This document shows positions 8,019 through 31,224 of a stretch of 64,000 bases of DNA, piece after piece; the first letter of the stretch is position 1; each line of letters begins with the position of its first letter. Both the position numbers and the translations under genes were made by a program. Below the pieces are notes generated by a model, which did no database searches, was not told the origin of the DNA, and saw only the letters and a program-made list of their open reading frames with translations. Origin of the DNA: Chelativorans sp. J32 (GTDB lineage: Bacteria > Pseudomonadota > Alphaproteobacteria > Rhizobiales > Rhizobiaceae); assembly GCF_000518985.1 (NCBI RefSeq), contig NZ_JAEQ01000014.1:1-64000 (forward strand). The letters run 5' to 3'.

Positions 8019-8057
8019 GCATATTGTAAATCCGGGCCTCATATTGGGGAGGCAGAG

Positions 8058-8396
8058 ATGTCCGAAATACAAATTGCCCATGAACCGCGCGATCCTCTGA
8101 TGATCGCCGAAGAGTGGATGAAGGCCGGCAAGGATGTAGCCGTGGCTACCGTCGTGGAGACATGGGGTTCAGCACCGCGTCCGGTTGGCAGCCATCTGGT
8201 CATCGATTCCGACGGCCTGTTCGAGGGATCCGTTTCCGGCGGCTGCGTCGAGGGGGCGGTGGTGGCCGAGGCGGCCGAGGTCATCGCAGATGGCAAGCCA
8301 CGCATGCTGGAATTCGGCGTCGCCGACGAAACGGCCTGGCGCGTCGGTCTTTCCTGTGGCGGCCGCATCAAGGTCTATGTGGAGCGGCTGGGCTGA
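8058..8396 (+). CDS. XdhC/CoxI N-terminal-domain protein
   Basis: 112-aa protein made only of the XdhC_CoxI domain. Motifs are VATVVETWGSAPRPVGSHLV and GLFEGSVSGGCVEGAVVAEA, and it ends LSCGGRIKVYVERLG. XdhC proteins bind the molybdenum cofactor, help sulphurate it and insert it into xanthine-dehydrogenase-type enzymes. In most bacteria this domain is fused to a Rossmann domain. Here the Rossmann half is a separate gene starting one base after this stop. The cysteine proposed to matter for sulphuration is plausibly the one in SGGCVEG. Forty bases separate it from the CoxE-like gene. Confidence 0.85.
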   Translation: MSEIQIAHEPRDPLMIAEEWMKAGKDVAVATVVETWGSAPRPVGSHLVIDSDGLFEGSVSGGCVEGAVVAEAAEVIADGKPRMLEFGVADETAWRVGLSCGGRIKVYVERLG

Positions 8397-8397
8397 G

Positions 8398-9105: not shown

Positions 9106-10718
9106 AGTTCGGCACCATTGCGACTGAAGGGGCGGAAGGTGCGATCCTGGCTCACGCCACATTCGCGGGCGAGAAGCGTCTGCGCAAGGCCCACCGCCTG
9201 ACCGCCGGAGATGTGGAGGACCTTCTGCGTGCAGGGGTCAGGGAGGTGATTGCAGCTGTCCTGGACCCGGGTGACCTCAATGAGGATGCGGCTGCCGCCC
9301 GGGTGGCTGCCGCCCTCGTATCCGACCATGTGGAGGGGCGGCCACCCTCGACCGGCAGGGTCAATCTGCACGCCACCGAGGCGGGCATTTTCGTTGTCGA
9401 TCGCAGCATTGTCGATGCCATCAACCGCGTCGATCCGGCGATAACCCTCGCCACGCTTGAACCCTATGCCGCCGTAGAGGCGGGGCAGATGGTGGCGACG
9501 GTCAAGATCATCCCCTTCGCGGTTCAAGAAGGGCTACTGGCGCGGGCCGAGGCCATAGCGGGTGAAGGCTCAGCCTTTTCGGTCCGTCCCTTTGTTCCTC
9601 GTTCCATTGGCCTCATTCAGACCGTCCTTCCGAGCATCAAGGCGAGTGTGCTTGATAAGACCGCCCGCATTACTGAAGCGCGCTTGGCGCGATCGGTGAG
9701 CCGCGTCACCGGTGAGTTGCGCCCGGTCCACGAAGTGGAGGCGGTTGCCGAGGCGATACGCAAGCAGGCCCGTTCCAATGATGTAGTGCTTGTCTTCGGG
9801 GCTTCGGCTGTTTCCGACGAGAATGACGTCGTGCCTGCTGCCATCCGGAAGGCCGGCGGCGAGGTTACGCGGGTAGGCATGCCCGTCGATCCTGGGAACC
9901 TGCTGGTGATGGGCTCGCTCGACGGCAAGCCCGTGATGGGCGTTCCAGGCTGTGCCCGCAGCCCAAAGCTCAACGGTTTCGATTGGGTGCTGGATCGCCT
10001 GATCGCGGGTATCGAGGTTTCGCCCGATGATATCGGGGCCATGGGCGTTGGCGGCCTTCTGATGGAAATCCCGACGCGTCCGCAGCCAAGGGAGGAGCGG
10101 GCCACGCGTGCTCCGGCAAAGGTCTGGGCGATATTGCTTGCCGCCGGACAGTCCCGGCGGATGGGGCCGCAAAACAAGCTGCTGGCGGAGTTTGAAGGAA
10201 AGCCGCTGGTAAGGCGCATGGCCGAGCGTCTTCTTGCAAGCGGGGCAGCGGGCACCCTTGTGGTGCTCGGACATGAACGTGAAGCCTTATCGAATGCTCT
10301 ATCCGGCCTTGAGGCGAGAACCGTTTACAATACTGACTTTGCAACCGGGCTGGCGAGTTCCCTGAAAACCGGCATCCGTGCTCTTCCCCCCTCCGCCGAC
10401 GCAGCACTCGTCGCACTCGCCGACATGCCAGGCCTGACGACGGCCGACATCGACCGGCTGGTTGCGGCTTTCTCCGCGTCCGGCGGACGCAGCATCATTC
10501 GCGCCACCCATAATGGCAAGCGCGGCAATCCGGTGATCCTCCCTCGTGCGCTCTTTCCCGAGGTGGAGAAACTCGAGGGCGACACAGGTGCGCGCCAGAT
10601 CGTGGAGAGTGCCGTCGATGTGGTCGACGTCGAACTTGGTGCGGCGGCAAGTCTGGATGTGGATACGCCAGATGCCCTGCGGGCCGCGGGCGGCGTGCTG
10701 AATCCCCGGGCATCCTAG
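9102..10718 (+). CDS. Molybdopterin-binding / MobA-like nucleotidyltransferase fusion protein
   Basis: 538-aa two-domain protein. The N-terminal ~340 residues resemble the MoeA/MogA-type molybdopterin-binding region (LRKAHRLTAGDVEDLLRAG, VLVFGASAVSDENDVVPAAI, VDPGNLLVMGSLDGKPVMGVPG). From about residue 345 there is a nucleotidyltransferase domain with LLAAGQSRRMGPQNKLL, ALVALADMPGLTT and KRGNPVILPR. The LAAG and GNPV forms resemble the cytidylyltransferase MocA more than the guanylyltransferase MobA. It therefore probably makes the cytosine dinucleotide cofactor used by xanthine-oxidase-family hydroxylases (inference). It overlaps the XdhC Rossmann gene by four bases and ends the island. Confidence 0.87.
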   Translation: MKFGTIATEGAEGAILAHATFAGEKRLRKAHRLTAGDVEDLLRAGVREVIAAVLDPGDLNEDAAAARVAAALVSDHVEGRPPSTGRVNLHATEAGIFVVDRSIVDAINRVDPAITLATLEPYAAVEAGQMVATVKIIPFAVQEGLLARAEAIAGEGSAFSVRPFVPRSIGLIQTVLPSIKASVLDKTARITEARLARSVSRVTGELRPVHEVEAVAEAIRKQARSNDVVLVFGASAVSDENDVVPAAIRKAGGEVTRVGMPVDPGNLLVMGSLDGKPVMGVPGCARSPKLNGFDWVLDRLIAGIEVSPDDIGAMGVGGLLMEIPTRPQPREERATRAPAKVWAILLAAGQSRRMGPQNKLLAEFEGKPLVRRMAERLLASGAAGTLVVLGHEREALSNALSGLEARTVYNTDFATGLASSLKTGIRALPPSADAALVALADMPGLTTADIDRLVAAFSASGGRSIIRATHNGKRGNPVILPRALFPEVEKLEGDTGARQIVESAVDVVDVELGAAASLDVDTPDALRAAGGVLNPRAS

Positions 10719-16636: not shown

Positions 16637-17635
16637 TCACGCAGCCAGGCGCTGCCTGCCGCCATGACGCTCCTGCTGGGGTGAGCGCGCGTAGAGTTCG
16701 CGGTAGCATTTGGAAAAGTGCGATGCGGAAACGAAGCCGCAGGCGACCGCCACCTCGACGATCGGCATTGTGGACTGGAGCAGTAGATTACGCGCCCTGT
16801 CCAGGCGTATTTCAAGGTAGTAGCGGGCAGGGGACCGGCCCATTTCCTGGCGGAAGAGGCGCTCGACCTGCCGGCGGGAGAGGCCCACGCGGTCGGCGAT
16901 TTCCATGAGCGACAGCGGCTCGCAGAGATTTGCCTCCATGAGCTCGATAATGGTGAGCACCTTGGAATTCTGCACGCCCAGGCGGGCGCGAAGCGGCAGG
17001 CGCTGGCGGTCGGACGGATTTCTCACCCGATCCGTCAGCATCTGCTCGCAAACGCGGTTGACCAGATTGTCGCCGAAATCCTCGCCGATCAGGCGGAACA
17101 TCATGTCCATGGCGGCGGTGCCGCCGGCACAGGTGTAGATGTTGGAATCGATCTCGAACAGATCTGCGAAGACATTGGCTTTCGGAAAGGCCTCGGCAAA
17201 CCCGGGCAGGTTCTCCCAATGGATCGCACAGCGCTTGTCGGAGAGCAGGCCGGCTGCTGCAAGGATATGCGCGCCCGTGCACAACCCGCCAAGGGTCACC
17301 CCGCGGTTATATTCCTCCCGCAGCCAGGCAAAGACCGTTTTGTTGCTGTAGGCTTCAACATTGAGGCCGCTGCAGACGATCACCATTGTGGGCCGATCAC
17401 TGCCGATCATCTTTCGCCGCTCATCGGCGAGCGAGGCATTGACGGCAAGCTCGACCCCATTCGAAGCCCGAACCGGGCCGCCGTCCGCACTCGCCAGCCG
17501 CCAGCGGTACGCCTCGTAACCGAGCATCCGGTTGGCCGAGCGAAGCGGCTCCAGAGCGGTTGCGAATGCGATCATGGTAAAATCCGGGATCAGGAAGAAA
17601 ACCAGTGACCGTTTGAGCTGCCGTTCCTCCCGCAT
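16637..17635 (-). CDS. GlxA-family transcriptional regulator (DJ-1/PfpI plus AraC HTH)
   Basis: 332-aa regulator. Residues about 10-185 form a DJ-1/PfpI-like amidotransferase fold (FFLIPDFTMIAFATALEPLRSANRM; elbow GGLCTGAHILAAAGLL). Residues about 220-325 form an AraC-type double helix-turn-helix (EPLSLMEIADRVGLSRRQVERLF; IVEVAVACGFVSASHFSKCYRE). Relatives GbdR, CdhR and ArgR-type proteins control catabolism of glycine betaine, carnitine or arginine. It might control the methylamine-type genes at 20.9-30.4 kb, which is speculation based on family only. The start is supported by a GGAGG about seven bases upstream. Confidence 0.9.
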   Translation of the reverse strand: MREERQLKRSLVFFLIPDFTMIAFATALEPLRSANRMLGYEAYRWRLASADGGPVRASNGVELAVNASLADERRKMIGSDRPTMVIVCSGLNVEAYSNKTVFAWLREEYNRGVTLGGLCTGAHILAAAGLLSDKRCAIHWENLPGFAEAFPKANVFADLFEIDSNIYTCAGGTAAMDMMFRLIGEDFGDNLVNRVCEQMLTDRVRNPSDRQRLPLRARLGVQNSKVLTIIELMEANLCEPLSLMEIADRVGLSRRQVERLFRQEMGRSPARYYLEIRLDRARNLLLQSTMPIVEVAVACGFVSASHFSKCYRELYARSPQQERHGGRQRLAA

Positions 17636-20021: not shown

Positions 20022-20894
20022 ATGCCAATCGAACCCTCCTTCTTCGAGGATTTCCAACTCGAGTTCATCGAGTTGCCGGAAGCGCGGCTGCGGGTCCGTC
20101 ATTACCGCTCAGGCCCACCCGTCCTGCTGCTGCACGGCCACCCTCGCACGCATACGACATGGTGGCGCGTCGCGCCGAAGTTGGCTCTGACTCACACAGT
20201 GGTCTGCCCGGACCTGCGCGGCTTCGGCCAATCCTCAAAACCGCTCGATACGCCCGACCACCGCCACTCCTCCAAGCGTGCCAAGGCGGCGGATTGCGTC
20301 GCGCTCATGCGCCAACTCGGTTTTGAGCGCTTCGCGGTCGTCGGTCACGACAGGGGCAGCTACACCGCTTTCCGGATGGCAATGGATTTCCCCGATGTAA
20401 TTTCCAAACTCGTGATCCTCGATGGTGTGCCGATCCTGGAGGCTCTGGAGCGCTGTGATGCGCGCTTTGCCACGGCGTGGTGGCACTGGTTCTTTTTCGC
20501 GCAGCCGGAGAAGCCAGAGCGGGCCATTCTCGCCGACTCTGACCGATGGTATCTTGGATCGCCGGAGAGGATGGGGGCGGAGAACCATTCGGATTTCCGT
20601 CTCGCCACCCGCGATCCGGATACCGTGCACGGAATGATCGAGGATTACCGGGCGGGGCTTGGAATTGATCGGCAGCACGACGCGGCGGATCGTGCCGCTG
20701 GCCGCACGATACAGTGCCCGACGATGGTCCTGTGGTCGCTGCGTGATGATCTCGAACAGCTCTATGGCGATGTCCTCGCGATATGGCGGCCCTGGGCTCC
20801 CAATCTCAGCGGGTATGGTATCGAGAGCGGCCATCACATGGCCGAAGAGGCGCCGGACGCGCTCGCGGAGGCGTTGCTACGATTCCTTGCCTGA
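20022..20894 (+). CDS. Alpha/beta hydrolase, haloacetate dehalogenase-like
   Basis: 290-aa hydrolase. LLLHGHPRTHTTWWRVAPKL (about 34-53) is the oxyanion region, and VVGHDRGSYTAFRMAMDFP (about 107-125) carries the Asp nucleophile (HDRG). AWWHWFFFAQPEKPERAI (about 151-168) and a final His in ESGHHMAEEAPD follow. The Asp nucleophile and the WHWFF segment match fluoroacetate/haloacetate dehalogenases (DehH1, FAcD), though epoxide hydrolases share the fold. It cleaves C-halogen bonds if the closest relatives are a guide. The last 18 bases overlap the end of the convergent activase gene. Confidence 0.83.
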   Translation: MPIEPSFFEDFQLEFIELPEARLRVRHYRSGPPVLLLHGHPRTHTTWWRVAPKLALTHTVVCPDLRGFGQSSKPLDTPDHRHSSKRAKAADCVALMRQLGFERFAVVGHDRGSYTAFRMAMDFPDVISKLVILDGVPILEALERCDARFATAWWHWFFFAQPEKPERAILADSDRWYLGSPERMGAENHSDFRLATRDPDTVHGMIEDYRAGLGIDRQHDAADRAAGRTIQCPTMVLWSLRDDLEQLYGDVLAIWRPWAPNLSGYGIESGHHMAEEAPDALAEALLRFLA

Positions 20895-22949
20895 TTGTCC
20901 CGTGCAACGCCGGCGCGGCTTCAAAATCTCCGCCTTGCGTCGCGCCCCCCCGCGCGAACGTCGGCGAGGTTCCTCCGAGAGCGCCTTGCACGGCGGAAGC
21001 TCCATTTGCTGCCTGAGCTTGGGGAAGGGATCCATCTTGTTGGGCAGCGCCATGGCGTGAACGAAATGCTTCTGGAATTTTGGCTCCAATGCAGTCTCGA
21101 TCTTCTCGATCCGGCGAACGACCTCCTCGATTTCGCGGCGGAAGCTGCGGTTTAGCAGTGCCATACGCGCTCCGGTGCCGGCCGAGTTGCCAACGGCCGA
21201 AACGTTTTTCAACTCGCAATCGGGAATGAGGCCCAGCACCATCGCATATATCGGATCGACGTAGGAGCCGAACGCACCTGCAAGACGGATCGCGTCCACT
21301 CTCTCCACCCCCTGCTTCTCCATGAGCAGCTTCGTGCCGGCATAGAGTGCTGCCTTGGCGAGTTGGATCGCGCGCACATCGTTTTGAGTCACCAGGATGC
21401 GTGGTTCGCCATCGTGGAGGAGATAGGCAAAGGTCCGGCCCTGGCTAACGATACGCGCGGTGCGTGTAGCAAGCCCGCCATCCACCACACCATCCTCGGA
21501 AATGATGCCGGAAAGATACATTTCCGCAATCACCTCTATGATCCCGGAGCCGCAAATGCCGGTTAACCCCGTCGCAGCGATCGCCTCGGCAAAGCCGGGT
21601 TCATTCGACCAAAGCTGGGACCCGATGACCTGAAAGCGCGGCTCTAGCGTTGTGCGGTCGATGCGGACGCGTTCGATGGCGCCAGCAGCGGCGCGCTGGC
21701 CGGAGGAAATCTCCGCGCCTTCAAAGGCCGGACCCGTGGGGGAGGAGGCAGCTACGAGCCGCTTCCTGTTGCCGAGCACGATTTCGGCATTCGTCCCGAT
21801 ATCGACGATCAGCATCATCTTGTCCTGGCGGTGAGGCCCCTCCGAGAGCGTGACAGCGGCGGCATCGGCGCCCACATGGCCGGCGATGCAGGGCAGCATG
21901 TAGATGCGCGCGCCGGAATTGAGGCCAAGATGCAGATCCGCCGCGCGCGCCTTGACCGCGCCGGAGACGGCAAGTGCAAACGGCGCGCCGCCGAGCTCTG
22001 TCGGGTCGATACCGAGGAACAGGTGGTGCATGACGGGATTACCGACGAACACCGCGTCGAGAATATCGCTGCGGTTCACCCCTCCCTCCGTCGCCACCCG
22101 GTCGACCAGCCTTGAAATCTCCAGCCGCACGGCCTTGGTCATCGCCTGCCGCCCATCCGGGTTCAGCATCACGTAGGAAACGCGGCTCATCAGGTCTTCG
22201 CCGAACCGGATCTGGGGGTTCGGCGCCCCCGCTGAAGCCACCACGCGGCCAGAGAGAAGGGAGACCAGATGCATGGCGATGGTCGTTGAGCCGATATCGC
22301 AGGCAAGGCCATAGGCCTCGTTCTTCAGCCCCGGCCAGAGCGCGATGATCCGGGCGGCGTCCTCCTCCTCGTCGTGATGAATGGCGACTGTCACCGCCCA
22401 ATTGCCCTGGCGCAAGGTTTTCTGCACATCACACAGAACATGAAAATCAGCGTCCAGCCGATTATAGCCCCAGTCTTTTCGGATTTGCGCCTTCAGCCGG
22501 TCGAGGTCGCCCAGCGGATGGTGCATGTCAGGCTCTTCCACCTCGATATAGCGAAGGTGCACCGCTGGATGCCGCTCAATGACACGGTTGTCCGCGTCCT
22601 TCCGAACGATTTGCGCATTGGCTGCTCCCTCCTGGGGCACGTCGATGACCAGATCCCCTTCGATCGTGGCCGAGCAGGAGAGGCGCCTGCCGGGCGCGAG
22701 TTCGCGCTTTTCCGCATAGCGCGCCTCCTTGGCACCGACCGGGGAGAGATGCTCCGTTGCAGAGAGGATCTTATGCTTGGCGAAGTGGCCTTCCTGCACC
22801 TCGATCTCGCAGCGCCCGCAGGTGGCCCGACCGCCGCAGACGCTTTCCACATAGACCCCTAGCCGTCTTGCCGCTTCCAGTACTGTCGTTCCCCTGGGGA
22901 AGCGCCCGCGCTTGCCTGACGGCATGAAGAGGACGAGAGGATCGCTCAT
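20877..22949 (-). CDS. Ferredoxin/ASKHA corrinoid reductive activase (RamA/RACo-like, DUF4445)
   Basis: 690-aa protein. The N-terminal ~95 residues are a 2Fe-2S ferredoxin with the cluster cysteines in VCGGRATCGRC and later LSCSA. After a linker comes an ASKHA ATPase domain with phosphate loops CDIGSTTIAMHLVS and LIVDIGTNAEIVLGN and a late RLAGAFGSYVDP. Such proteins use ATP to drive reduction of inactive Co(II) corrinoids, restoring corrinoid methyltransferases. That fits the methyltransferase and corrinoid protein genes 0.1-4 kb away on the same strand. The last ~60 residues form a lysine- and arginine-rich tail (RRRSRGGARRK), unusual for the family. Confidence 0.87.
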   Translation of the reverse strand: MSDPLVLFMPSGKRGRFPRGTTVLEAARRLGVYVESVCGGRATCGRCEIEVQEGHFAKHKILSATEHLSPVGAKEARYAEKRELAPGRRLSCSATIEGDLVIDVPQEGAANAQIVRKDADNRVIERHPAVHLRYIEVEEPDMHHPLGDLDRLKAQIRKDWGYNRLDADFHVLCDVQKTLRQGNWAVTVAIHHDEEEDAARIIALWPGLKNEAYGLACDIGSTTIAMHLVSLLSGRVVASAGAPNPQIRFGEDLMSRVSYVMLNPDGRQAMTKAVRLEISRLVDRVATEGGVNRSDILDAVFVGNPVMHHLFLGIDPTELGGAPFALAVSGAVKARAADLHLGLNSGARIYMLPCIAGHVGADAAAVTLSEGPHRQDKMMLIVDIGTNAEIVLGNRKRLVAASSPTGPAFEGAEISSGQRAAAGAIERVRIDRTTLEPRFQVIGSQLWSNEPGFAEAIAATGLTGICGSGIIEVIAEMYLSGIISEDGVVDGGLATRTARIVSQGRTFAYLLHDGEPRILVTQNDVRAIQLAKAALYAGTKLLMEKQGVERVDAIRLAGAFGSYVDPIYAMVLGLIPDCELKNVSAVGNSAGTGARMALLNRSFRREIEEVVRRIEKIETALEPKFQKHFVHAMALPNKMDPFPKLRQQMELPPCKALSEEPRRRSRGGARRKAEILKPRRRCTGQSGKES

Positions 22950-23107
22950 CGGTCAGTATTTGGGTGCGAGGGATGGCAGACACAAAAGTTCCCGCAGCCA
23001 CCGGGTGCCACGAAGGCAAGCTCGAGGGCCAAGAAGGAGGGAAGGCGCATCGGTTCTATATGCCTCTCATCCTGGGTGAGAGCGGAGCGAGCCACGAAGG
23101 GAGAGGG

Positions 23108-24100
23108 TCATGCGGACTCCAAATCGTCGTTTCCCCGACCGAGCCTCGCCCGCCGGGCCTCACGTCCGCCTCGGCGGCGGACGCCTTCCTGACCACCGCC
23201 ATTCGGGGAGTCCACCACGGATTGGGAGGTCCCAAGCGTGGGCTGGTGGTTGCGGTAGGTCCTTATCCAGGCCTGACAGTTTGGATCGGTCCCGTTCAGT
23301 ACATTGGCGGCGCGTACTATCTCCATCTCCTGAGGCCGGCAGGGATTCATGATCGCGCTTGTCATGCCCGCACCTATAACCATGGGGATGAAGGCTGCAT
23401 TGATCCCATGCCGGTGTGGCAGGCCGAAGGAGATGTTGGAAAGGCCACAGGTGGTATTGACCTCAAGTTCCTCGCGGAGCCGGCGCAGCAGCGCAAACAC
23501 TTGTTTGGCTGCCGTTTCCATCGCGCCGATCGGCATCACCAGAGGATCGACCACGATATCCCGGACCGGGATCCCGTAATCCGCCGCGCGCCGGACGATC
23601 CTCTTGGCCACCTCGAAGCGGACGTCCGGATCTTCGGAAATCCCCGTTTCGTCGTTTGAAATTGCGACCACCGGGACATCATATTTCTTAACCAGCGGCA
23701 GGATCGTTTCCAGTTTCTCCTCCTCGCCGGTGACCGAGTTTACCAGCGGCCGACCCTTGGCCACTTTCAGCGCTGCCTCGATCGCGGCAGAGACGGAGGA
23801 ATCGATCGAGAGCGGAACGTCCACGAGTTCCTGCACGATCTGAAGCGTCTGCACGAGAAGGCCCGGTTCCGTGGCGTTGGGATCGACAGCGCTCACGCCG
23901 GCATTGATATCCAGCATGGTGGCGCCCGCAGCCACCTGCTCCAGCGCGTCTCTTTCCACGGTCTCGAAATTGCCCGCCACCATCTCGGCTGCAAGCTTCT
24001 TTCGCCCGGTGGGATTGATCCGCTCGCCGATGACACAGAAAGGCTGGTCGAACCCGATCACGAGCTCCCGGGTTGCAGAAGCAACGATGGTGCGGGTCAT
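23108..24100 (-). CDS. Methyltetrahydrofolate:corrinoid methyltransferase
   Basis: 330-aa pterin-binding TIM-barrel enzyme (AcsE/MtgA-like; the fold shared with MetH and dihydropteroate synthase). Motifs: CVIGERINPTGRKKLAAEM (about 22-40), ATMLDINAGVSAVDPNATEP, PLSIDSSVSAAIEAALKV, PLVNSVTGEEEK and AISNDETGISEDPDVRF. It moves a methyl group between a corrinoid protein and tetrahydrofolate. In demethylating systems it takes the methyl from the corrinoid protein. The start at 24100 is preferred over one 11 codons upstream because MTRTIVASATRELVIGF matches family N termini. The C-terminal 30 residues are Gly/Arg rich and look non-conserved. The activase gene begins 158 bases downstream. Confidence 0.9.
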   Translation of the reverse strand: MTRTIVASATRELVIGFDQPFCVIGERINPTGRKKLAAEMVAGNFETVERDALEQVAAGATMLDINAGVSAVDPNATEPGLLVQTLQIVQELVDVPLSIDSSVSAAIEAALKVAKGRPLVNSVTGEEEKLETILPLVKKYDVPVVAISNDETGISEDPDVRFEVAKRIVRRAADYGIPVRDIVVDPLVMPIGAMETAAKQVFALLRRLREELEVNTTCGLSNISFGLPHRHGINAAFIPMVIGAGMTSAIMNPCRPQEMEIVRAANVLNGTDPNCQAWIRTYRNHQPTLGTSQSVVDSPNGGGQEGVRRRGGREARRARLGRGNDDLESA

Positions 24101-24214
24101 ATGCGGCGCTCCTCCATCAAACCCTTCGGGCATAGTTTGGAGAATTGCCGAGGGTTTTGCCGTTGACGCGTTGTTAAGCGACGCGCTCCGCCATCAAAAG
24201 CGACGTCGCGAGTG

Positions 24215-24862
24215 TCAGAAAAGGAAGAAGGCGGCCAGGGCGCCCGCGCTGCCGATGATGATCGCAATCAGTGCGAACGAAAACAGCCCCACCGCGACCG
24301 CCGTGCCCAGCAGAAGCCCGTCGCGCTCCGAAAGCGCAAGCCCGAGCAGTGCACATGCGAGAGCCGGTAGCCAGTTGCCGAATGGAATCGGAAGCGTGAT
24401 CACCGTGGAAAGCAGCAGGGCGAAGAGACCGACCATGCGATCGACCCTTCGATCCGCGAAAGGCCAGTAGCGAGGTCGGATCAACCGCTCCACCCACCGG
24501 ACCCTGGGGACAAGCCTTTCGCTCATCTGACGGAACTGATCCACGCCCACCGACTTCGTCAGGATCGTGCGCGGCAGCCAGACGGTCTTGCGGCCGAGCA
24601 CCATCTGCATCGAGACGAGCAGAAGCGGAACACCGAGAACAAGCGTGCTTCCCGGCGGGAGCGGAAGCAGGTTGAGAAGAGCGAAGAAGACAAGCAGCGT
24701 CGCGAAGCTGCGGTCGCCGAGGGCGTCCCGCAACTGCTCCATCGTGATCGCGGTCTTTGCGTTCTTAGCGAGATCCTCAAAGATCTGCGATAGGCGCCTT
24801 GGCGGCGGACCGGAAAACCGGCGTGCCGTCGCTGTCTCGAGTGCGCTTCCTTCCGCTTTCAA
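24215..24862 (-). CDS. exoD: ExoD-family exopolysaccharide synthesis protein
   Basis: 215-aa inner-membrane protein with three to four hydrophobic segments. Landmarks are LSQIFEDLAKNAKTAITMEQLRDALGDRSFATLLVFFALLNLLPLPPG split over the first half, RYWPFADRRVDRMVGL, and VITLPIPFGNWLPALACALLGLALSERDG. ExoD of Sinorhizobium is needed for normal exopolysaccharide and nodule invasion, but its biochemical role is unknown. The frame opens with a TTG just after an in-frame stop, so TTG is the probable start. It seems unrelated to the methyl-transfer genes around it. Confidence 0.85.
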   Translation of the reverse strand: MKAEGSALETATARRFSGPPPRRLSQIFEDLAKNAKTAITMEQLRDALGDRSFATLLVFFALLNLLPLPPGSTLVLGVPLLLVSMQMVLGRKTVWLPRTILTKSVGVDQFRQMSERLVPRVRWVERLIRPRYWPFADRRVDRMVGLFALLLSTVITLPIPFGNWLPALACALLGLALSERDGLLLGTAVAVGLFSFALIAIIIGSAGALAAFFLF

Positions 24863-24941
24863 CCTGCTCGACTTTCAACCAATTTTACTACAGGGGGCTT
24901 GTACCGCGCGGTGCGGTTAAGGCCCGGTCTCATATAGGAAC

Positions 24942-25526
24942 TCAACGCGAGCGGCGAAACTCCAATATATCGAGCTTCGACTCGCGTGCAGGCGCTGGAA
25001 ACTCGATACGCCAGTGGTCCTGGCCGTCGCGAAACACATAGCCGGCCTGATCCGTTTCGGGCCCGAGGCCGTAACGTGGCGGCGTCTCACCGGCGATGAA
25101 GAAGGCGCCGAGATAGATGAGCCGCTTGTCACCATCATCGAAGAAACGTCCCTTGGTTCTCTGCGAGCCCGAGAGCTTTTCCAGGGTCCAACCGGAGCCG
25201 TCATCCGTAACGCGGCAGCGAAACCAGTCATAGATGACGAGCGAGGCAAGTCCGCCGGCCTTGATCGTCCGGCATTGCCACTCGCCCACTATGTCAAAAC
25301 GGTCGAAGGAGAGGGCGGGACGAGATATGATTTGCTTGAAAGTGGCCACGTCGGTGGGCGATCCGCCGGCTTCGGCCTCCGCCACAGCCTCCTGGCGAGT
25401 AGTCTCATAGTCTTTTAGCCGAGCGGAGTCGGGCTTCGTGATGATGCGGATGATTTCGCCATCCGCGTGAGCGATGCCGCTTACACTGATCAGAAGAAAT
25501 GCCAGCAACGAAAATCGAACAAACAT
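24942..25526 (-). CDS. DUF4893-like secreted protein
   Basis: 194-aa protein from the ATG at 25526, which follows GGAGG by about six bases and opens a signal peptide (MFVRFSLLAFLLISVSGIAHA). A longer upstream frame of arginine-rich sequence is a shadow of the DUF1638 gene. The mature part contains DIVGEWQCRTIKAGG, YDWFRCRVTDDGSGW and a C-terminal WRIEFPAPARESKLDILEF, matching the DUF4893 family. Its two conserved-looking cysteines might pair. Function is unknown and it is probably periplasmic. Confidence 0.78.
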   Translation of the reverse strand: MFVRFSLLAFLLISVSGIAHADGEIIRIITKPDSARLKDYETTRQEAVAEAEAGGSPTDVATFKQIISRPALSFDRFDIVGEWQCRTIKAGGLASLVIYDWFRCRVTDDGSGWTLEKLSGSQRTKGRFFDDGDKRLIYLGAFFIAGETPPRYGLGPETDQAGYVFRDGQDHWRIEFPAPARESKLDILEFRRSR

Positions 25527-25591
25527 CCACACCCTCCGAAAACAATAGGTGCTATAGCAGCAATTCCGGCTCTTTCGTGACTCATCGACAC

Positions 25592-26230
25592 TCAAAGGGA
25601 TAGAGTGCCGGCCTTGCGCAAGGCTGCCGTCAGATCCCCGTAACCAGTGAAGCGTCGTTCGTAGGAAAGCCCGAGCAGCCGCGCGGCGTTCCGGGCGACC
25701 TCCTCCAGGACGGGATCTTCCACCTGGGCCAGATACACGAGTTTCTCGTAATTGCCGAAGAAATCCGTGATCAGTTCGGGATGCCGGTCGATGCCAAGTG
25801 GCTTTAGGAAGAACGCCTCGAACTGGCGGCAGAGGAAATCCGTCATATAAAAGGAGGTCATATCCTCCTCGGCTTTTTCCGCGAAACTCGAAAGCCCCTG
25901 GTAAAAGCCGAAGCAATGGGGTCCGGCGATGCGGGAGACCGCGTGCTTCTCGCACACTCGGTCGATTTCTCCGCCGGTTCCGCAATCCGCATACCCGACG
26001 AAGATATTGCGATAGCCTTCCGCCTGTGCACGGCCGATCGCGGCATCAAGGGCAGGGGGAATGCGATCGGGGTAGTAGTGATATTCGGCGGGCAGGCAGG
26101 TGAGTTCCAGGTGTTTGAAGCCGAGGCGCTCGCGCACTGCCAGCACTTCGCGGGCGATCATCCCGCAGGCAATGACCAGAACCTTTTCCGGCTCAGAGCG
26201 TTCTATGGCCGTCATTGCGATTGCTTTCAC
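25592..26230 (-). CDS. DUF1638 protein (corrinoid-methyltransferase-associated)
   Basis: 212-aa cytosolic protein of the DUF1638 family. Conserved blocks are VLVIACGMIAREVLAVRE, LTCLPAEYHYYPDRIPPALD, IFVGYADCGTGGEID and GPHCFGFYQG. Four cysteines in conserved settings suggest metal or cofactor binding (inference). Genes of this family frequently neighbour MttB-type methyltransferases and corrinoid proteins, as here, but no activity is established. The frame opens with GTG; an ATG five codons further in (26215) is an equally possible start. Confidence 0.82.
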   Translation of the reverse strand: MKAIAMTAIERSEPEKVLVIACGMIAREVLAVRERLGFKHLELTCLPAEYHYYPDRIPPALDAAIGRAQAEGYRNIFVGYADCGTGGEIDRVCEKHAVSRIAGPHCFGFYQGLSSFAEKAEEDMTSFYMTDFLCRQFEAFFLKPLGIDRHPELITDFFGNYEKLVYLAQVEDPVLEEVARNAARLLGLSYERRFTGYGDLTAALRKAGTLSL

Positions 26231-26265
26231 GTCTCACGCGTGGAGCAGAACGGGGAAACAGGATT

Positions 26266-26427
26266 ATGTCTGCCAAGATACTTTCGCGCATCGCAGTTCT
26301 CGTTGCCGCTATCTGCCTGACCGCCGGGTGCGCCAATACCATCCGCGGCGTGGGCCAAGACACGGCAAATGCCGTCAACGCCACGCAGAACGCGGGCCAG
26401 AATGTGGCGAACGCCGCCGAGAGATAG
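26266..26427 (+). CDS. Entericidin-like small lipoprotein
   Basis: 53-aa protein with a lipoprotein signal peptide ending in the lipobox LTAGC (Cys about residue 21). The mature part CANTIRGVGQDTANAVNATQNAGQ has the pattern of entericidin A/B proteins. Such envelope lipoproteins were described as toxin/antidote pairs in E. coli, but in alphaproteobacteria single copies are common and their role is unclear. The start is fixed by the signal peptide and the preceding ACAGGA. It is divergent from the DUF1638 gene and converges on the corrinoid protein gene. Confidence 0.85.
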   Translation: MSAKILSRIAVLVAAICLTAGCANTIRGVGQDTANAVNATQNAGQNVANAAER

Positions 26428-26453
26428 CCCGTTCACTCGAACGGGAGCGGCGC

Positions 26454-27146
26454 TCACGCCACGAGATTGTGCTTGCGCCTCATGAGTTCCTTCGCGGTTT
26501 CGACCGCAACGGCCGCGTCACGGCAATAGGCGTCCGCTCCCACGGCTTGCCCAAATTCCTCGTTTAGCGGCGCGCCGCCAACGAGGACGATGATTTCGTC
26601 CCGGATTCCCTTTTCCTTCAGCGTATCGATGACGACTTTCATATAAGGCATGGTCGTGGTGAGGAGGGCCGACATCCCGATGATGTCGGGCCTGTGTTTT
26701 TCGATCGCAGCGAGATAGTTTTCGACCGGGTTGTTGATGCCGAGGTCGATCACTTCGAAGCCGGCGCCTTCCATCATCATGCTGACCAGGTTCTTGCCGA
26801 TATCGTGGATATCGCCCTTGACCGTACCGATCACCATCTTGCCTTGTTTCGGCGCTCCAGTCTCCGCTAGAAGCGGCCGCAGGATCGCCATGCCGGCCTT
26901 CATCGCGTTGGCCGAGAGCAGCACCTCGGGGACGAACAGGATGCCGTCGCGAAAATCCTCGCCCACAATGCGCATGCCCTCGACCAGGGCCTTGGTGAGC
27001 ACGTCATAGGGTGCCCAGCCGCGTTCGAGCAGGATGCGCGTGCTTTCCTCGATTTCCTCCTTCAGGCCATCATAGAGATCATCGTGCATCTGTAACACAA
27101 GCTCGTCATCAGGCAGCTGCGAGAGGATAATTTCATCGTCGGACAT
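26454..27146 (-). CDS. Methyltransferase corrinoid protein (MttC/MtgC-like)
   Basis: 230-aa cobalamin carrier. The N-terminal ~95 residues form the B12-binding-2 helical cap (GMRIVGEDFRDGILFVPEVLLSANAMKAG). The rest is the B12-binding Rossmann domain with the base-off DxHxxG motif GDIHDIGKN (Asp112, His114, Gly117) and VVLVGGAPLN-like IIVLVGGAPLNEEF. It accepts a methyl group from an MttB-type enzyme and hands it to the tetrahydrofolate methyltransferase. The start at 27146 is chosen because the extra 24 codons upstream look unconserved. The MttB homologue lies 1.7 kb away on the opposite strand. Confidence 0.92.
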   Translation of the reverse strand: MSDDEIILSQLPDDELVLQMHDDLYDGLKEEIEESTRILLERGWAPYDVLTKALVEGMRIVGEDFRDGILFVPEVLLSANAMKAGMAILRPLLAETGAPKQGKMVIGTVKGDIHDIGKNLVSMMMEGAGFEVIDLGINNPVENYLAAIEKHRPDIIGMSALLTTTMPYMKVVIDTLKEKGIRDEIIVLVGGAPLNEEFGQAVGADAYCRDAAVAVETAKELMRRKHNLVA

Positions 27147-27397
27147 GCCTGGCTCCTGCCTGTGCTCCGCTTCCGGTCCTGGTAGATAAGCCTCGTTGCG
27201 CGGCGATCCATTGCCCATTTACGACGCAAATGCTGAGCGAAAGCGACCGTGGTCTCACGTCACAGTTGTTGATCACCGCCGTGAGCGATTGACAATCTGG
27301 AGTTGCGTTCGCATTAATGAATGCACGCGTTAATTTTTTATTAAGCACGGTTCGTTAGCTCTGAAATTGCGGGGGCAAGTTTCGCCTAGGAGCATAT

Positions 27398-27865
27398 ATG
27401 AAGAAAGCTTTGCTTGCCGCCGCCTTGCTTGTAACAGCCGCGGCACCTGCCGCCGCTGTTACGGAAACGATGACCTTTAGCGGCACGGTCAATCCAGTGT
27501 GCACGATCACCATCGATTCTCCCGGTGTACTGGTACCGGATGCTACTCTGGTGCAGTTGAGCACCAGACAGGTAGGCGGGACCGCTGGTATGGCGACCAT
27601 CCAGACCACCGGCTCTAGCTTCAACGTTTCCACCACGGCGCCGAGCGCCTTCACGTCTGCTCCCGCCGGAGCCGACGCGAATGTCACCTTCGCCGCCCTG
27701 TACAGCGCCACCGGCGCAACGACCCTGAGCGACGTCCCCGGCGCAACCCCTTCGCCGCTTGGTCAGGGCACGACGACCTTGAATGTTAATTTAACGGCCA
27801 TGAAGTCGAGCGGGACGTTCCCCGACGGCGAATATTCGGCCGATCTCGTCGTCACCTGCGAATAG
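27398..27865 (+). CDS. Secreted pilin/spore-coat-U-like protein
   Basis: 155-aa protein with a signal peptide (MKKALLAAALLVTAAAPAAA). The mature part is Thr/Ser/Ala rich with alternating beta-strand character. It has one early and one terminal cysteine (FSGTVNPVCTITID ... YSADLVVTCE), a spacing reminiscent of chaperone-usher pilins and SCPU proteins. It leads a three-gene operon with a chaperone-like protein ten bases downstream. No usher gene follows. The family assignment is tentative. The 250-base upstream region is AT rich (GCGTTAATTTTTTATTAAG) and may hold a strong promoter. Confidence 0.65.
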   Translation: MKKALLAAALLVTAAAPAAAVTETMTFSGTVNPVCTITIDSPGVLVPDATLVQLSTRQVGGTAGMATIQTTGSSFNVSTTAPSAFTSAPAGADANVTFAALYSATGATTLSDVPGATPSPLGQGTTTLNVNLTAMKSSGTFPDGEYSADLVVTCE

Positions 27866-27874
27866 GAGCGGGGC

Positions 27875-28267
27875 ATGAGACCGGGCCTGCTGCTCCGGGT
27901 GATCGTGCTGGTGGTTGCCTGTGTAGGACAGGCGGGCGCGCAATCGATGTCTCCGATGCGCGGCACCGTCACCAGCTTCACCGACGAGTTTGCCGTCCGC
28001 GTCTTTCCGAAGAATCCGTACCGCCGTCCAGTGGAAGTGGCGGTACGGGTCTATGATGAGAAGTTCCGGCCGGTGGAAGCGCGGATATCACCTCCATCGA
28101 TGATGCTGGCCGCCGGAGCATCGCGCCCTGTCGTCGTCGTCGTCGGCTTCGGGGAGGAGAATGTACGGCGCGTTCGCGTCTGCACTGAAAGTGTTCCCTT
28201 TCCCGAAGGCAAAACAAGGATCAGAGCGCAGATATGTGGACGCTTCCTGGCGCGCCGCGTGCGGTGA
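27875..28267 (+). CDS. PapD-like single-domain periplasmic protein
   Basis: 130-aa protein with a signal peptide (about 1-22, ending AGAQS). The remaining ~105 residues resemble the N-terminal immunoglobulin-like domain of pilus chaperones: TDEFAVRVFPKNPYRRPVEVAVRVYDEKFRPVEA, then a basic strand and VRRVRVCTESVPF. There is no second chaperone domain. It probably helps fold the upstream pilin-like protein (inference). AGGAGCGGGGC precedes the ATG. Its end overlaps the next gene or abuts its internal start. Confidence 0.6.
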   Translation: MRPGLLLRVIVLVVACVGQAGAQSMSPMRGTVTSFTDEFAVRVFPKNPYRRPVEVAVRVYDEKFRPVEARISPPSMMLAAGASRPVVVVVGFGEENVRRVRVCTESVPFPEGKTRIRAQICGRFLARRVR

Positions 28268-28716
28268 GCATGGCGATTCTGGCGGTCTTTCTGCTGCAAG
28301 GTCGTGCAATGGCGGACGACTACATCATCAACCAGAACCAGACCGGCATTGCCTTGCCGGGGGTTGCCCTGCCGAACGGGTATGACGAGGTCAGGGCCGC
28401 CGACGGAACCGTGTGCCGCTCCGCGGTAAGCGGATCGGGGGCCTATATCGATTCAGGGCTGATCGGCGGGGGGCTCAACAGCAACAATCGAAACACGATA
28501 TCGGCTTACGGCCGGGTGGTCATTCCACTCGGTACAAAGCCTGACAGGCTCAATTGCGACCATCTCTATCAGCTCGAATTGGAACGGCTGCGATTTGAGG
28601 TGCAAATGCTGAAACGCGGACTGGACCCTCGGCTGAACCAGCCGTCGACCTCCGACGAGGAGTGGGCAACGGAAGGTTGGTCCGCGGCGGGCAAGACCGT
28701 CGGCCTGCCGAAATAG
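28234..28716 (+). CDS. Secreted protein of unknown function
   Basis: 160 aa from 28234, overlapping the chaperone-like gene by 34 bases. An ATG at 28270, three bases after that gene's stop, would give a shorter protein that still starts with a signal peptide (MAILAVFLLQGRAMA). The mature part begins DDYIINQNQTGIALPGVALPNGYDEV and has a single Cys pair (GTVCRSAV, LNCDHLY) and GGGLNSNNRNTISAYGRVVIPLG. There is no recognised family. It is the third gene of the pilin-like operon, so it may be a minor subunit or anchor. Confidence 0.6.
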   Translation: MWTLPGAPRAVSMAILAVFLLQGRAMADDYIINQNQTGIALPGVALPNGYDEVRAADGTVCRSAVSGSGAYIDSGLIGGGLNSNNRNTISAYGRVVIPLGTKPDRLNCDHLYQLELERLRFEVQMLKRGLDPRLNQPSTSDEEWATEGWSAAGKTVGLPK

Positions 28717-28836
28717 TTGCATGTGAAAGCCTCCGCTCTCGTTGCGACATGGCTTGGCGCTCGCGGAACGGCCGGTTCCGCGCGGACAGATAGGATGATG
28801 CCCACGGCATTGACCAGGGAGCGCAAGGGTTGAGCC

Positions 28837-30393
28837 ATGGACCAGGAGCCTGGAGGTGAGGCGAGGCGCACACGCGGCGGAGGTGGAGCGGCTGCCCGAC
28901 GTGCAGCCCGCGCCGGTGGCGCGCTAGGGCCGCAACTCAGTTATATCCGCCGAAAACTGCCGAATTACGAAGTCCTTGGCGAGGAGGGGCTTGCGCTAAT
29001 CGAAGCCAATGCCGACTCGGTGCTCGAGGAGATCGGCATCGAGTTTCGCGGCGACGCCGAGGCGCTGAGTCTTTGGAGAGAGGTTGGGGCCGATGTTACG
29101 GGAGAGCGCGTGCGCTTCCCCAAAGGCCTCTGCCAAAGCCTGTTGCGAACGGCGCCTTCGATATTCACCCAACATGCCCGCAATCCTGAGCGTTCGGTGA
29201 AGATCGGCGGCGACGCCACTGTCTTCGCACCGGTTTACGGACCGCCCTTCGTGCGGGACCTGGATGGCAGCCGCCGTTATGCAACGGTGGAAGATTTCCG
29301 CAATCTCGTTAAGCTGTCCTATCTGGCACCGGCGATCCATCACTCCGGCGGCACGGTTTGCGAACCGGTGGACGTACCGGTCAATAAGCGCCATCTCGAC
29401 ATGGTCTATGCGCATATGCGCTTCTCAGACAAGCCATTCATGGGTTCTGTGACTGCGCCCGAGCGGGCGGAGGATACGGTGGCGATGGCGAAGATCCTCT
29501 TCGGAGAGGATTTCGTAGAGGAAAACACGGTCATCATCAGCCTGATCAATGCGAACTCGCCGATGGTCTTCGACGAGACCATGCTGGGCGCTGCCAAGGT
29601 CTATGCGCGTCACAACCAGGCGACGATCATCACCCCCTTCATCCTGGCAGGAGCCATGAGCCCGGTGACCGTGGCGGGTACGCTGACGCAGGTACTCGCG
29701 GAAGTCCTTGCCGGAGCGGCTTTCACACAGCTCGTGCGTCCGGGGGCGCCCGTTGTCTTCGGCACCTTCGCGTCGTCCATCTCCATGCAATCGGGGGCGC
29801 CGACCTTCGGAACGCCGGAGCCCTCGCTCGTCTCATATGGTGCGGCGCAATTGGCTCGCCGCCTGGGCCTGCCATTCCGCACGGGCGGTTCGCTGACCGC
29901 CTCGAAAGTCTGCGATGCACAGGCAGCTTATGAGAGTGCCAACACGCTCAATTCCACGATGCTTGCGGGCACGAATTTTGTTTTGCATGCGGCTGGCTGG
30001 CTGGAAGGCGGGCTCGTCTCTTCCTACGAGAAATTCGTGATGGATGCGGATCAGCTCGGAATGCAGCAACGCTTCGCCGAGGGAATTGACCTCTCCGAAA
30101 ACGGCCAGGCCATGGATGCGATCCGGGAGGTGGGTCCGGGCAGCCATTATCTTGGCTGTGCTCACACCCAGGCCAACTTCCAGACTGCCTTCTATCGCTC
30201 CTCGGTGGCCGACAACAATTCTTTCGAGCAATGGCTGGCGGAGGGGGAGAAGACAGCCCACCAGCGCGCCAATCAGCTTGCCCGGCAGTGGCTGGAATCA
30301 TATCAGGCTCCGCCGCTGGACGAGGCAGTAGACGATGCTTTGCGGGACTTTATCGCCCGCAAGAAAGCCTCGATGCCTGACGCTTTTGCATGA
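28837..30393 (+). CDS. MttB-superfamily trimethylamine/quaternary-amine methyltransferase
   Basis: 518-aa TIM-barrel methyltransferase of the MttB superfamily. Landmarks: NYEVLGEEGLALIEANADSVLEEIGIEF, FAPVYGPPFVRDLDGSRRYATVEDF, SGGTVCEPVDVPVNKRHLDM, SGAPTFGTPEPSLVSYGAAQLARR and GPGSHYLGCAHTQANFQTAFYRS. The frame has no amber codon, so it belongs to the non-pyrrolysine branch, whose studied members (such as MtgB) demethylate glycine betaine and related quaternary amines instead of trimethylamine. The partner corrinoid protein, folate methyltransferase and activase are all within 8 kb. The first ~30 residues are Arg/Gly/Ala rich and probably disordered. The substrate is not determinable here. 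Confidence 0.92.
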   Translation: MDQEPGGEARRTRGGGGAAARRAARAGGALGPQLSYIRRKLPNYEVLGEEGLALIEANADSVLEEIGIEFRGDAEALSLWREVGADVTGERVRFPKGLCQSLLRTAPSIFTQHARNPERSVKIGGDATVFAPVYGPPFVRDLDGSRRYATVEDFRNLVKLSYLAPAIHHSGGTVCEPVDVPVNKRHLDMVYAHMRFSDKPFMGSVTAPERAEDTVAMAKILFGEDFVEENTVIISLINANSPMVFDETMLGAAKVYARHNQATIITPFILAGAMSPVTVAGTLTQVLAEVLAGAAFTQLVRPGAPVVFGTFASSISMQSGAPTFGTPEPSLVSYGAAQLARRLGLPFRTGGSLTASKVCDAQAAYESANTLNSTMLAGTNFVLHAAGWLEGGLVSSYEKFVMDADQLGMQQRFAEGIDLSENGQAMDAIREVGPGSHYLGCAHTQANFQTAFYRSSVADNNSFEQWLAEGEKTAHQRANQLARQWLESYQAPPLDEAVDDALRDFIARKKASMPDAFA

Positions 30394-30489: not shown

Positions 30490-31224
30490 ATGGCAAAAGA
30501 AGAAATCGAGATCAAGACCTCGGAAGGTACGGCCAAGGCCGGTCTATTTATGCCGGAGGCCGGCGCTTCTCGGGCCGGCGTGATCCTTTATATGGATGCA
30601 TTCGGATTGCGGCCCGCGCTCGACGTGATGGCGCAGCGCATCTGCCGCGAGGGTTACACGGTGCTCGTGCCGGATCTCTTCTATCGTTTCGGGCAGTATG
30701 GGCCCTATGATGCGAGGACCGCATTCCAGAACGAAGCATCCGCCAAAGAAATCAGACATATGATTGCCGAGACGACGCAGGAGATGACGCAGCGCGATAC
30801 GGGCGCCTTTCTAGCCGCACTCGATCAGGGCGGTGCCAGCGGCCCGATTGCCACGGTCGGATACTGCATGGGAGGAGCGCGTGCCCTCAATGCCGCTGCT
30901 GCCTATCCCGGCCGCATCTTGGCGGCTGCAAGCTTCCATGGCGGAAACCTCGCATCGGACACTTCCGACAGTCCTCATCTCAAAGCCGCATCCATCAAGG
31001 CTCGCGTATATGTGGGCATGGCCGGCGTCGACCGCTCGTTCCCACCGGAACAATCCACCCGCTTTGCTGACGCCTTCCGGGCGGCGGAAGTGGATTTCGC
31101 CATGGAGAACTATGTGGGCATGCAGCATGGCTGGGCCGTGCCTGACCACAGCGTCTTCGATGAAGCCGGTGCCGAGCGGCACTGGCGGCGGCTTCTCTGC
31201 TTGCTTTCGGAGACGCTTCGGTAG
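30490..31224 (+). CDS. Dienelactone hydrolase family protein
   Basis: 244-aa alpha/beta hydrolase. The Cys nucleophile lies in VGYCMGGARALNAAAAYPG (about 122-140). The acid is plausibly in the GMAGVDRSFPPE segment and the base is the His of GMQHGWAVPD (about 216-225). Carboxymethylenebutenolidase uses a Cys-Asp-His triad to open dienelactone in chlorocatechol breakdown, but most paralogues have other ester or lactone substrates. A GGAGG-rich site lies just before the ATG. The gene appears monocistronic. Confidence 0.88.
   Translation: MAKEEIEIKTSEGTAKAGLFMPEAGASRAGVILYMDAFGLRPALDVMAQRICREGYTVLVPDLFYRFGQYGPYDARTAFQNEASAKEIRHMIAETTQEMTQRDTGAFLAALDQGGASGPIATVGYCMGGARALNAAAAYPGRILAAASFHGGNLASDTSDSPHLKAASIKARVYVGMAGVDRSFPPEQSTRFADAFRAAEVDFAMENYVGMQHGWAVPDHSVFDEAGAERHWRRLLCLLSETLR

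What the first reader, a model, noticed from the sequence alone, without database searches (positions are those of the whole stretch)
20877..30393. A complete corrinoid-dependent demethylation module in an apparently aerobic alphaproteobacterium
All four functional parts of a quaternary-amine demethylation route are present: MttB-superfamily methyltransferase without pyrrolysine (28837-30393), corrinoid protein with DIHDIGKN (26454-27146), methyl-tetrahydrofolate:corrinoid methyltransferase (23108-24100) and ferredoxin/ASKHA activase (20877-22949). DUF1638 is a fifth, associated member. Such systems are best studied in anaerobes. Here the parts are spread over two strands with unrelated genes between them, suggesting a remodelled cluster feeding one-carbon units to folate. 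The substrate is open: glycine betaine, proline betaine, carnitine or another N-methyl compound.
Basis: partly seen in the sequence, partly recalled or inferred. Interest (0 to 1): 0.72.

Follow-up and report, generated by a model that had tools for sequence, protein, structure and literature searches.

The report
Betaine demethylase module that lost methionine arm
This is the already described vitamin-B12-dependent betaine demethylation module of aerobic alphaproteobacteria, but in this one bacterium it has lost the parts that elsewhere let it also make methionine, which makes it a natural test of how the two jobs are linked.

Summary
In detail: MttB-family methyltransferase (28837-30393), corrinoid protein, DUF1638, pterin-binding methyltransferase and RACo-type activase are intact and co-conserved. 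The system is not new. It is MtgBCD plus two reactivation proteins; genetics on MtgC and MtgD in aerobic Ruegeria pomeroyi showed roles in glycine betaine breakdown and methionine synthesis (PMC12478193), and the activase and DUF1638 were tied to B12 methionine synthesis in Phaeobacter (PMC5764234). The layout is not a remodelled oddity: 70 of 70 relatives' loci that hold all five genes have the same order and strands. What is unusual is what is missing. The 12 other module-bearing genomes of the genus all keep the homocysteine arm MtgE and a small PF13769 protein; this genome lacks both, lacks the linked methylenetetrahydrofolate reductase, and is the only module-bearing one with a single-chain MetH. 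MtgD and RamA, and more weakly MtgC, evolve faster here; the demethylase MtgB does not. Best reading: a demethylation-only derivative of a dual-function enzyme. Substrate most likely glycine betaine; not proven.

The parts
28837..30393 (+). MtgB: non-pyrrolysine MttB-family betaine:corrinoid methyltransferase
   Evidence: PF06253 790 bits; 932 bits to PDB 4yyc, 428 and 426 bits to 2qne and 9yce (D. hafniense MtgB); 192 of 406 compared residues identical to 9yce, and four published docking-predicted betaine contacts conserved as Y134, N238, R348, H384
26454..27146 (-). MtgC: corrinoid protein (B12 cap + B12-binding domain, DIHDIGKN)
   Evidence: PF02607, PF02310; best NCBIfam model MtgC NF047996 219 bits, below its cut-off 370
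25592..26230 (-). DUF1638 protein, accessory, probably corrinoid reactivation
   Evidence: PF07796 82.6 bits; in 76 of 80 loci and 12 of 12 module-bearing congeners; fitness link to B12 methionine synthase in P. inhibens (PMC5764234); invariant C22, H40, C45, H51, C83, H105, C106 in 40 aligned sequences
23108..24100 (-). MtgD: methylcorrinoid:tetrahydrofolate methyltransferase (pterin-binding)
   Evidence: PF00809 99.7 bits; NCBIfam NF005719 396 bits, over cut-off 259; accelerated in this lineage, 29:7
20877..22949 (-). RamA/RACo-like corrinoid activase (ferredoxin + ASKHA)
   Evidence: Fer2, RACo_linker, Raco_middle, RACo_C_ter; accelerated, 61:26
24134..24214 (.). Deletion site: in relatives the PF13769 gene and, mostly, MTHFR genes lie here; 81 bases remain between ExoD and the longest mtgD frame (114 to the ATG at 24100)
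   Evidence: PF13769 gene between mtgD and DUF1638 in 71 of 71 loci that hold mtgD and in the fetched region of 12 of 12 module-bearing congeners; no match in this genome
30394..31552 (.). Place where mtgE lies in the nearest module-bearing relative G011, between mtgB and a dehydrogenase gene; here a dienelactone-hydrolase-like gene instead
   Evidence: G011 layout; dehydrogenase label by eye; PF01738 for 30490-31224; no MtgE-type PF02574 gene in the genome
24215..24862 (-). ExoD-like protein, frequent neighbour, not assigned to the pathway
   Evidence: PF06055; in 31 of 80 loci
16637..17635 (-). AraC-type regulator resembling GbdR (choline/betaine regulator), possible regulator of the module
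   Evidence: NCBIfam NF052371 GbdR 373 bits, below cut-off 480; homologue on 5 of 80 loci; most flanks do not reach that far

Best explanation
The five genes encode an MtgB/MtgC/MtgD demethylase with its two accessory proteins. MtgB moves a methyl group from a quaternary amine, most likely glycine betaine (giving dimethylglycine), to cob(I)alamin on MtgC; MtgD passes it to tetrahydrofolate; the RamA-like protein, with DUF1638 helping, re-reduces cob(II)alamin that forms by oxidation. In relatives MtgC and MtgD also run in reverse with MtgE to make methionine. In this lineage a single-chain MetH does that job, and MtgE and the PF13769 protein have been lost, so the module is now used for demethylation only. 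Methyl-folate is presumably oxidised by an unlinked MTHFR. Shown here: gene content, co-conservation, losses, MetH presence, rate pattern, purifying selection. Shown by others in relatives: roles of MtgC and MtgD in betaine growth and methionine synthesis. Inferred: MtgB activity and substrate in this species, demethylation-only use, the route of methyl-folate.
For: Domains. Same five genes, order and strands in 70 of 70 loci that hold them all. R. pomeroyi mtgC and mtgD mutants fail to grow on glycine betaine and need methionine (PMC12478193). Within 16 genomes of the genus: MtgD and MTTB in 13; MtgE and PF13769 in 12 of the 12 other module-bearing genomes, absent here and in the 3 without module; single-chain MetH only here and in those 3; two-piece MetH in 3; no MetH match in the other 9. 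MetH here has all domains including activation. Species tree of 8 proteins: this genome sister to module-less G006, then G011, then G012, support 1.0 at each node. Relative rates own:G011, outgroup G012: MtgD 29:7 (p 0.0003), RamA 61:26 (p 0.0002), MtgC 10:2 (p 0.04); MtgB 18:20, DUF1638 15:9, eight control genes 154:129. Pairwise dN/dS 0.04-0.13 against G011. Predicted betaine contacts conserved. A protein with FAD-oxidoreductase plus GcvT domains, as in dimethylglycine/sarcosine dehydrogenases (recalled), is encoded on the same contig. No GbcA: the only Rieske oxygenase match scores 84 of 670 bits for GbcA.
Against: No experiment on this organism, and in the passages read MtgB itself was not tested alone in an aerobe. 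The contact residues were predicted by docking and would suit other betaines. Having MetH does not by itself remove MtgE: S. meliloti keeps both (PMC12478193, PMC5764234), and G008, G009 and G015 have a two-piece MetH with MtgE. Sister species G006 lost the whole module, so this one may be on the way out rather than specialised. RamA excess is weaker with outgroup G007 (52:32, p 0.04), MtgC is not significant with G007 or G004 (p 0.15, 0.34), and one control gene (S58, outgroup G007) is as uneven, 35:15, p 0.007; no correction for 13 genes. One lineage, so the link between loss of MtgE and faster MtgD/RamA is a single event. No linked MTHFR; the folate sink is inferred.
Confidence: 0.68

Rival explanations
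1. Same demethylation module, but the substrate is another N-methylated compound (proline betaine, carnitine, gamma-butyrobetaine or similar), glycine betaine being only a close relative of the true substrate.
For: The MttB family covers several betaines (PMC12478193 discussion); contact residues are docking predictions; MtgB specificity was not shown individually for alphaproteobacterial proteins in the passages read.
Against: This is the sole MTTB gene of the genome and belongs to the higher-scoring group (787-799 bits) found in 11 of 12 module-bearing congeners, while a lower-scoring paralogue (608-680 bits) comes and goes (9 of 12); GbdR-like regulator in the window; FAD/GcvT dehydrogenase present.
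Confidence: 0.22
2. The module is a decaying remnant: MetH made it dispensable, the sister lineage has already lost it, and this species is losing it piece by piece.
For: Graded series: MTHFR missing in G012 and G011, then MtgE and PF13769 missing here, whole module missing in sister G006; faster MtgD and RamA, with 15 of 61 RamA and 5 of 29 MtgD changes at columns at least 95% conserved among the loci, against 3 of 26 and 1 of 7 in G011.
Against: All five frames open, motifs present; dN/dS 0.04-0.13 to G011; MtgB and DUF1638 not significantly accelerated.
Confidence: 0.15
3. The module still makes methionine here, with another homocysteine S-methyltransferase (the 323-aa frame on contig 20) replacing MtgE.
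For: That protein is in PF02574.
Against: It scores 63 of 338 bits for the betaine-homocysteine model and 50 of 215 for homocysteine S-methyltransferase; PF02574 proteins of the same bit range (118-138) occur in 6 congeners that also have MtgE or MetH (G004, G006, G007, G008, G010, G011); a complete MetH is present.
Confidence: 0.05

Closest known systems
MtgBCD(E) of Ruegeria pomeroyi DSS-3 (Mausz et al. 2025, PMC12478193)
   Same: MtgB, MtgC, MtgD, RamA-like and DUF1638 proteins; aerobic alphaproteobacterium; folate as methyl acceptor
   Different: Genes clustered here; no MtgE, no PF13769 gene, no linked MTHFR; MetH present. Sequences were not compared directly (R. pomeroyi was not fetched)
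Split B12 methionine synthase of Phaeobacter inhibens (Price et al. 2018, PMC5764234)
   Same: Corrinoid protein, pterin protein, DUF4445/RamA-like and DUF1638 proteins
   Different: The homocysteine methyltransferase subunit that defines methionine synthesis is absent from this genome
MtgABC of Desulfitobacterium hafniense (anaerobe)
   Same: MtgB homologue, 192 of 406 compared residues identical; same chemistry expected
   Different: Host lineage taken to be aerobic (not tested). Whether the pterin protein is closer to D. hafniense MtgA or to MetH/CFeSP methyltransferases was not tested: no chain in the list is named MtgA, but only chain names were seen
Sinorhizobium mtg cluster and PDB 4yyc
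   Same: Four Sinorhizobium loci carry the module; L067, L068 and L074 hold all five genes in the same order; 4yyc is the closest solved protein, 932 bits (that 4yyc is from S. meliloti is recalled)
   Different: S. medicae L067 keeps MtgE, PF13769 and MetF/MetV in the cluster

Membership tests
MtgBCD-type corrinoid betaine demethylase | MTTB-family protein without pyrrolysine | tested here: met
   PF06253 790 bits, no in-frame stop, below cut-off of the pyrrolysine model
MtgBCD-type corrinoid betaine demethylase | Separate corrinoid protein and pterin-binding methyltransferase linked to it | tested here: met
   same order in 70 of 70 loci holding all five
MtgBCD-type corrinoid betaine demethylase | Reductive activase and DUF1638 | tested here: met
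MtgBCD-type corrinoid betaine demethylase | Methyl transfer from glycine betaine | not testable with these tools
   Only residue conservation
MtgBCD-type corrinoid betaine demethylase | Closer to the R. pomeroyi proteins than to other MTTB/MtgC groups in a tree | not tested
   R. pomeroyi and the characterised Eubacterium enzymes were not fetched
Split B12-dependent methionine synthase (MtgCDE) | MtgE, a PF02574 homocysteine-binding subunit (208-222 bits in congeners) | tested here: not met
   Absent here, present in 12 of 12 module-bearing congeners
Split B12-dependent methionine synthase (MtgCDE) | No single-chain MetH to do the job (usual, not strict: S. meliloti has both) | tested here: not met
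   MetH of 1276 aa with activation domain
Pyrrolysine trimethylamine methyltransferase MttB | In-frame amber codon / score over TIGR02369 cut-off | tested here: not met
   No in-frame stop; 288 bits, cut-off 525
Rieske-type betaine monooxygenase route (GbcAB) | GbcA homologue in the genome | tested here: not met
   One PF00848 match; GbcA model 84 of 670 bits

The most novel reading that the evidence does not exclude
The PF13769 'virulence factor' protein is an unrecognised subunit of the methionine-making side of MtgCDE, not of demethylation: it lies between mtgD and DUF1638 in all 71 loci that hold mtgD and in the fetched module region of all 12 module-bearing congeners, and it vanishes together with MtgE in the one genome of the genus where single-chain MetH coexists with the module, while DUF1638 stays and so belongs to the shared corrinoid chemistry. 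Released from methionine synthesis, MtgD and RamA then changed quickly to suit one-way demethylation.
Probability: 0.25. Interest if true: 0.6.

Novelty: new variant of a known kind. Interest (0 to 1): 0.42.

Why it matters
The published model says one corrinoid core serves both betaine breakdown and methionine synthesis. A lineage that has MetH, has dropped the methionine arm and has kept the demethylase separates the two functions without a laboratory mutant. It suggests which accessory proteins belong to which function (DUF1638 to the shared core, PF13769 to the methionine side); for DUF1638 the authors of PMC5764234 had no specific proposal, and for PF13769 no paper was found in the searches made.

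Tried and rejected
Pyrrolysine reading of MttB: rejected. 'Remodelled cluster' from strand layout: rejected. Fusion of mtgD with a neighbour, suggested by open frames of 1018-1051 aa for G009 and G014: no frame over 600 aa holding mtgD was seen on re-reading those two regions. Horizontal origin of the fast-evolving genes: single-gene trees place this genome's MtgC, MtgD, DUF1638 and RamA in clades of congeners (some with L037, Nitratireductor sp. B36), MtgB with G011 and G012 (0.97); but the rooted MtgB tree does not show the genus as one clade, MtgC joins G007, and the place of MtgD inside the genus is unresolved, so recombination is not excluded. DUF1638 function by fold: pLDDT 86, no PDB match at E 0.001 or better, none by sequence up to E 10. 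PF13769 protein: pLDDT 92 for the best model but 71-73 for the other four, no PDB match at E 0.001 or better. Origin of metH: 93% identical to G006, 85% to G001, 84% to G003, no shared neighbour gene found within about 8 kb; vertical descent and gain both remain possible. purB alone gave too weak a tree. Promoter scan of 27140-28850: no promoter-like site, one terminator-like site, not above chance. Searches for papers on the specific combination (MtgE loss, PF13769 link); nothing found beyond PMC12478193 and PMC5764234, which is a statement about these searches only. Papers: PMC12478193 outline, passages, results part 1 of 2 and discussion; PMC5764234, PMC6855144 and PMC9842639 passages; all others search listings only. 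A tree against characterised MtgB/MtpB/MtcB/MtyB was not made.
Full report
What is there. Pfam gives MTTB, B12 cap plus B12-binding, DUF1638, Pterin_bind and the four RACo domains, in intact frames. The MttB protein is the only match of its family in the genome, has no in-frame stop and scores 288 bits where the pyrrolysine model asks 525. Among solved structures it is closest to 4yyc (932 bits), then to D. hafniense MtgB (2qne 428, 9yce 426 bits), with 192 of 406 residues identical to 9yce in the part compared. The four docking-predicted betaine contacts of PMC6855144 (Y94, N199, R309, H345, taken as one less than the 9yce count because that makes all four letters fit) are Y134, N238, R348 and H384 here. 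They would suit other carboxylated betaines too.

Is it conserved. The one genome-contig scan kept the best 80 of 587 confirmed stretches, 78-86% identical, nearly all titled as rhizobial genera (Mesorhizobium, Aminobacter, Phyllobacterium, Nitratireductor, Hoeflea, Sinorhizobium and others). All five genes were found on 70 of 80, and in those 70 the order and strands are the same: ramA, mtgD, DUF1638, mtgC on one strand and mtgB diverging on the other. Of the other 10, most are short records; L033 and L076 have full flanks without mtgD and ramA in reach. So the two-strand layout is the usual one. ExoD (31 of 80) and DUF4893 (50 of 80) neighbours recur. The three small genes between mtgC and mtgB (27398-28716) are in 6 of the 12 congener regions (two of the 12 do not reach mtgC) and in 1 of the 80 loci, Nitratireductor sp. 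B36; they have no Pfam match, and 'fimbrial-like' is my impression only.

What is known. PMC12478193 (results part 1, discussion and passages read) shows in R. pomeroyi that mtgC and mtgD mutants fail on glycine betaine and need methionine, names MtgB to MtgE, and points to RamA and DUF1638 for corrinoid reactivation; it reports mtgBCDE and the reactivation genes together in S. meliloti. [quoted passage not shown] inhibens, with no specific role proposed for DUF1638. The finding as put forward is therefore a member of a published system.

What is missing here. Between mtgD and DUF1638 relatives carry a PF13769 protein of about 100 residues, in 71 of 71 loci that hold mtgD, and usually MTHFR genes: a MetF-like plus a PF12225 protein (56 loci) or a second MetF type (14 loci); two of the 72 loci with the PF13769 gene, L064 and L075, have no MTHFR. 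On 60 of 80 loci an MtgE-type gene lies within the flank beyond mtgB. In the window ExoD ends 81 bases from the longest mtgD frame and none of these genes is present. Genome-wide the PF13769 protein has no match here, while the same search finds it in 12 of 15 congeners, which is its positive control. PF02574 finds MetH and a divergent 323-aa frame but no MtgE.

The genus table (16 genomes). MtgD (85% or more identical) and MTTB: 13 of 16, not G001, G003, G006. MtgE: 12 of the 12 other module-bearing genomes, not here, not in the three. PF13769: the same. Single-chain MetH (1270-1280 aa): this genome and the three without module. G008, G009 and G015 have a MetH in two neighbouring pieces; domains of the larger piece were read for G015 only (pterin, B12, activation). 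The other nine show no MetH match in either search. MTHFR is missing from the interval also in G011 and G012. The MTTB group of 787-799 bits is found here and in 11 of 12 congeners; in G015 the contig ends in the module and the gene used as its MtgB is a paralogue (G015 is not used in the rate tests). Nine of 12 congeners have two MTTB genes, G015 both of the lower class.

Order of events. A tree of eight proteins from the purB region, held for all 16 genomes, gives (G012,(G011,(this genome,G006))) with support 1.0 at each of these nodes. G011 and G012 lack the MTHFR but keep MtgE and PF13769; this genome has lost those and has MetH; its sister G006 has MetH and no module. Whether MetH was gained or kept is not settled. 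The genus is probably Nitratireductor, since L037 falls among the congeners in the MtgC, MtgD and DUF1638 trees; that is inference.

Rates. Changes special to this genome against G011, outgroup G012: MtgD 29 to 7, RamA 61 to 26, MtgC 10 to 2, MtgB 18 to 20, DUF1638 15 to 9; eight control genes together 154 to 129, and G006 against G011 146 to 135. With outgroups G007 and G004, MtgD has p 0.003 and 0.005, RamA 0.04 and 0.0005, MtgC 0.15 and 0.34; one control gene, S58 with G007, reaches p 0.007. No multiple-test correction was made. Synonymous divergence is high (dS near 1) and this lineage has rather larger dS overall, but dN/dS is 0.04-0.13 against G011 for all five genes, so all are under constraint. 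Faster change in parts shared with methionine synthesis and none in the demethylase is what release from a second job predicts; one lineage cannot prove it, and recombination is not excluded.

A caution. MetH alone does not explain the loss: S. meliloti has MetH and MtgE together by the two papers, and G008, G009 and G015 have two-piece MetH and MtgE.

Mechanism. MtgB to MtgC to tetrahydrofolate by MtgD, reactivation by RamA with DUF1638. The methyl-folate must be used or oxidised: the genome has a canonical MetF and two proteins of the second MetF type, each beside a LigM/DesA-like O-demethylase gene, one with a gene that by eye is a formyltetrahydrofolate hydrolase. A FAD-oxidoreductase/GcvT protein, the make-up of dimethylglycine and sarcosine dehydrogenases (recalled), lies about 70 kb away on the same contig. 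No GbcA-like oxygenase was found. A GbdR-like regulator lies at 16637-17635. Betaine transporters were not searched for.

Verdict. Observation confirmed; system already described; new is a variant that looks demethylation-only, within a genus where the 12 other carriers keep both functions.

Noticed in passing
27398-28716 +: Three small genes between mtgC and mtgB, present in 6 of 12 congener regions and in Nitratireductor sp. B36 (49-57% identical), with no Pfam match; secreted or fimbrial-like by eye.
   Followed up: partly
L009:5082-5384 and relatives: PF13769 'virulence factor' protein tracks the mtg module (71 of 71 loci with mtgD, 12 of 12 module-bearing congeners); no paper linking them was found.
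   Followed up: partly
L088, L089 (own genome contigs 10 and 13): Two LigM/DesA-like aromatic O-demethylase genes (both over the LigM model cut-off), each next to an atypical MTHFR.
   Followed up: partly
L221, L222, L223 (G008, G009, G015): MetH in two neighbouring pieces (frames of 369-383 aa and 894 aa) in genomes that also have MtgE.
   Followed up: partly
L162-L171: A second MTTB paralogue (608-680 bits) in 9 of 12 module-bearing congeners, 6.7-10.5 kb from the first in 8 of the 9; absent here.
   Followed up: no
window:25592-26230: DUF1638 has seven invariant Cys/His residues in 40 sequences (C22, H40, C45, H51, C83, H105, C106), a possible metal or corrinoid site; the fold has no clear PDB match.
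   Followed up: partly
6771-10718 +: CoxE-like VWA, XdhC-like and MobA-like genes in a row, as in molybdenum hydroxylase maturation (recalled), found in the purB region of all 15 congeners.
   Followed up: no
L217:8774-12604 (own genome contig 1) and L218-L220: metH has no shared neighbour gene within about 8 kb between this genome and its sister G006, although the proteins are 93% identical.
   Followed up: partly
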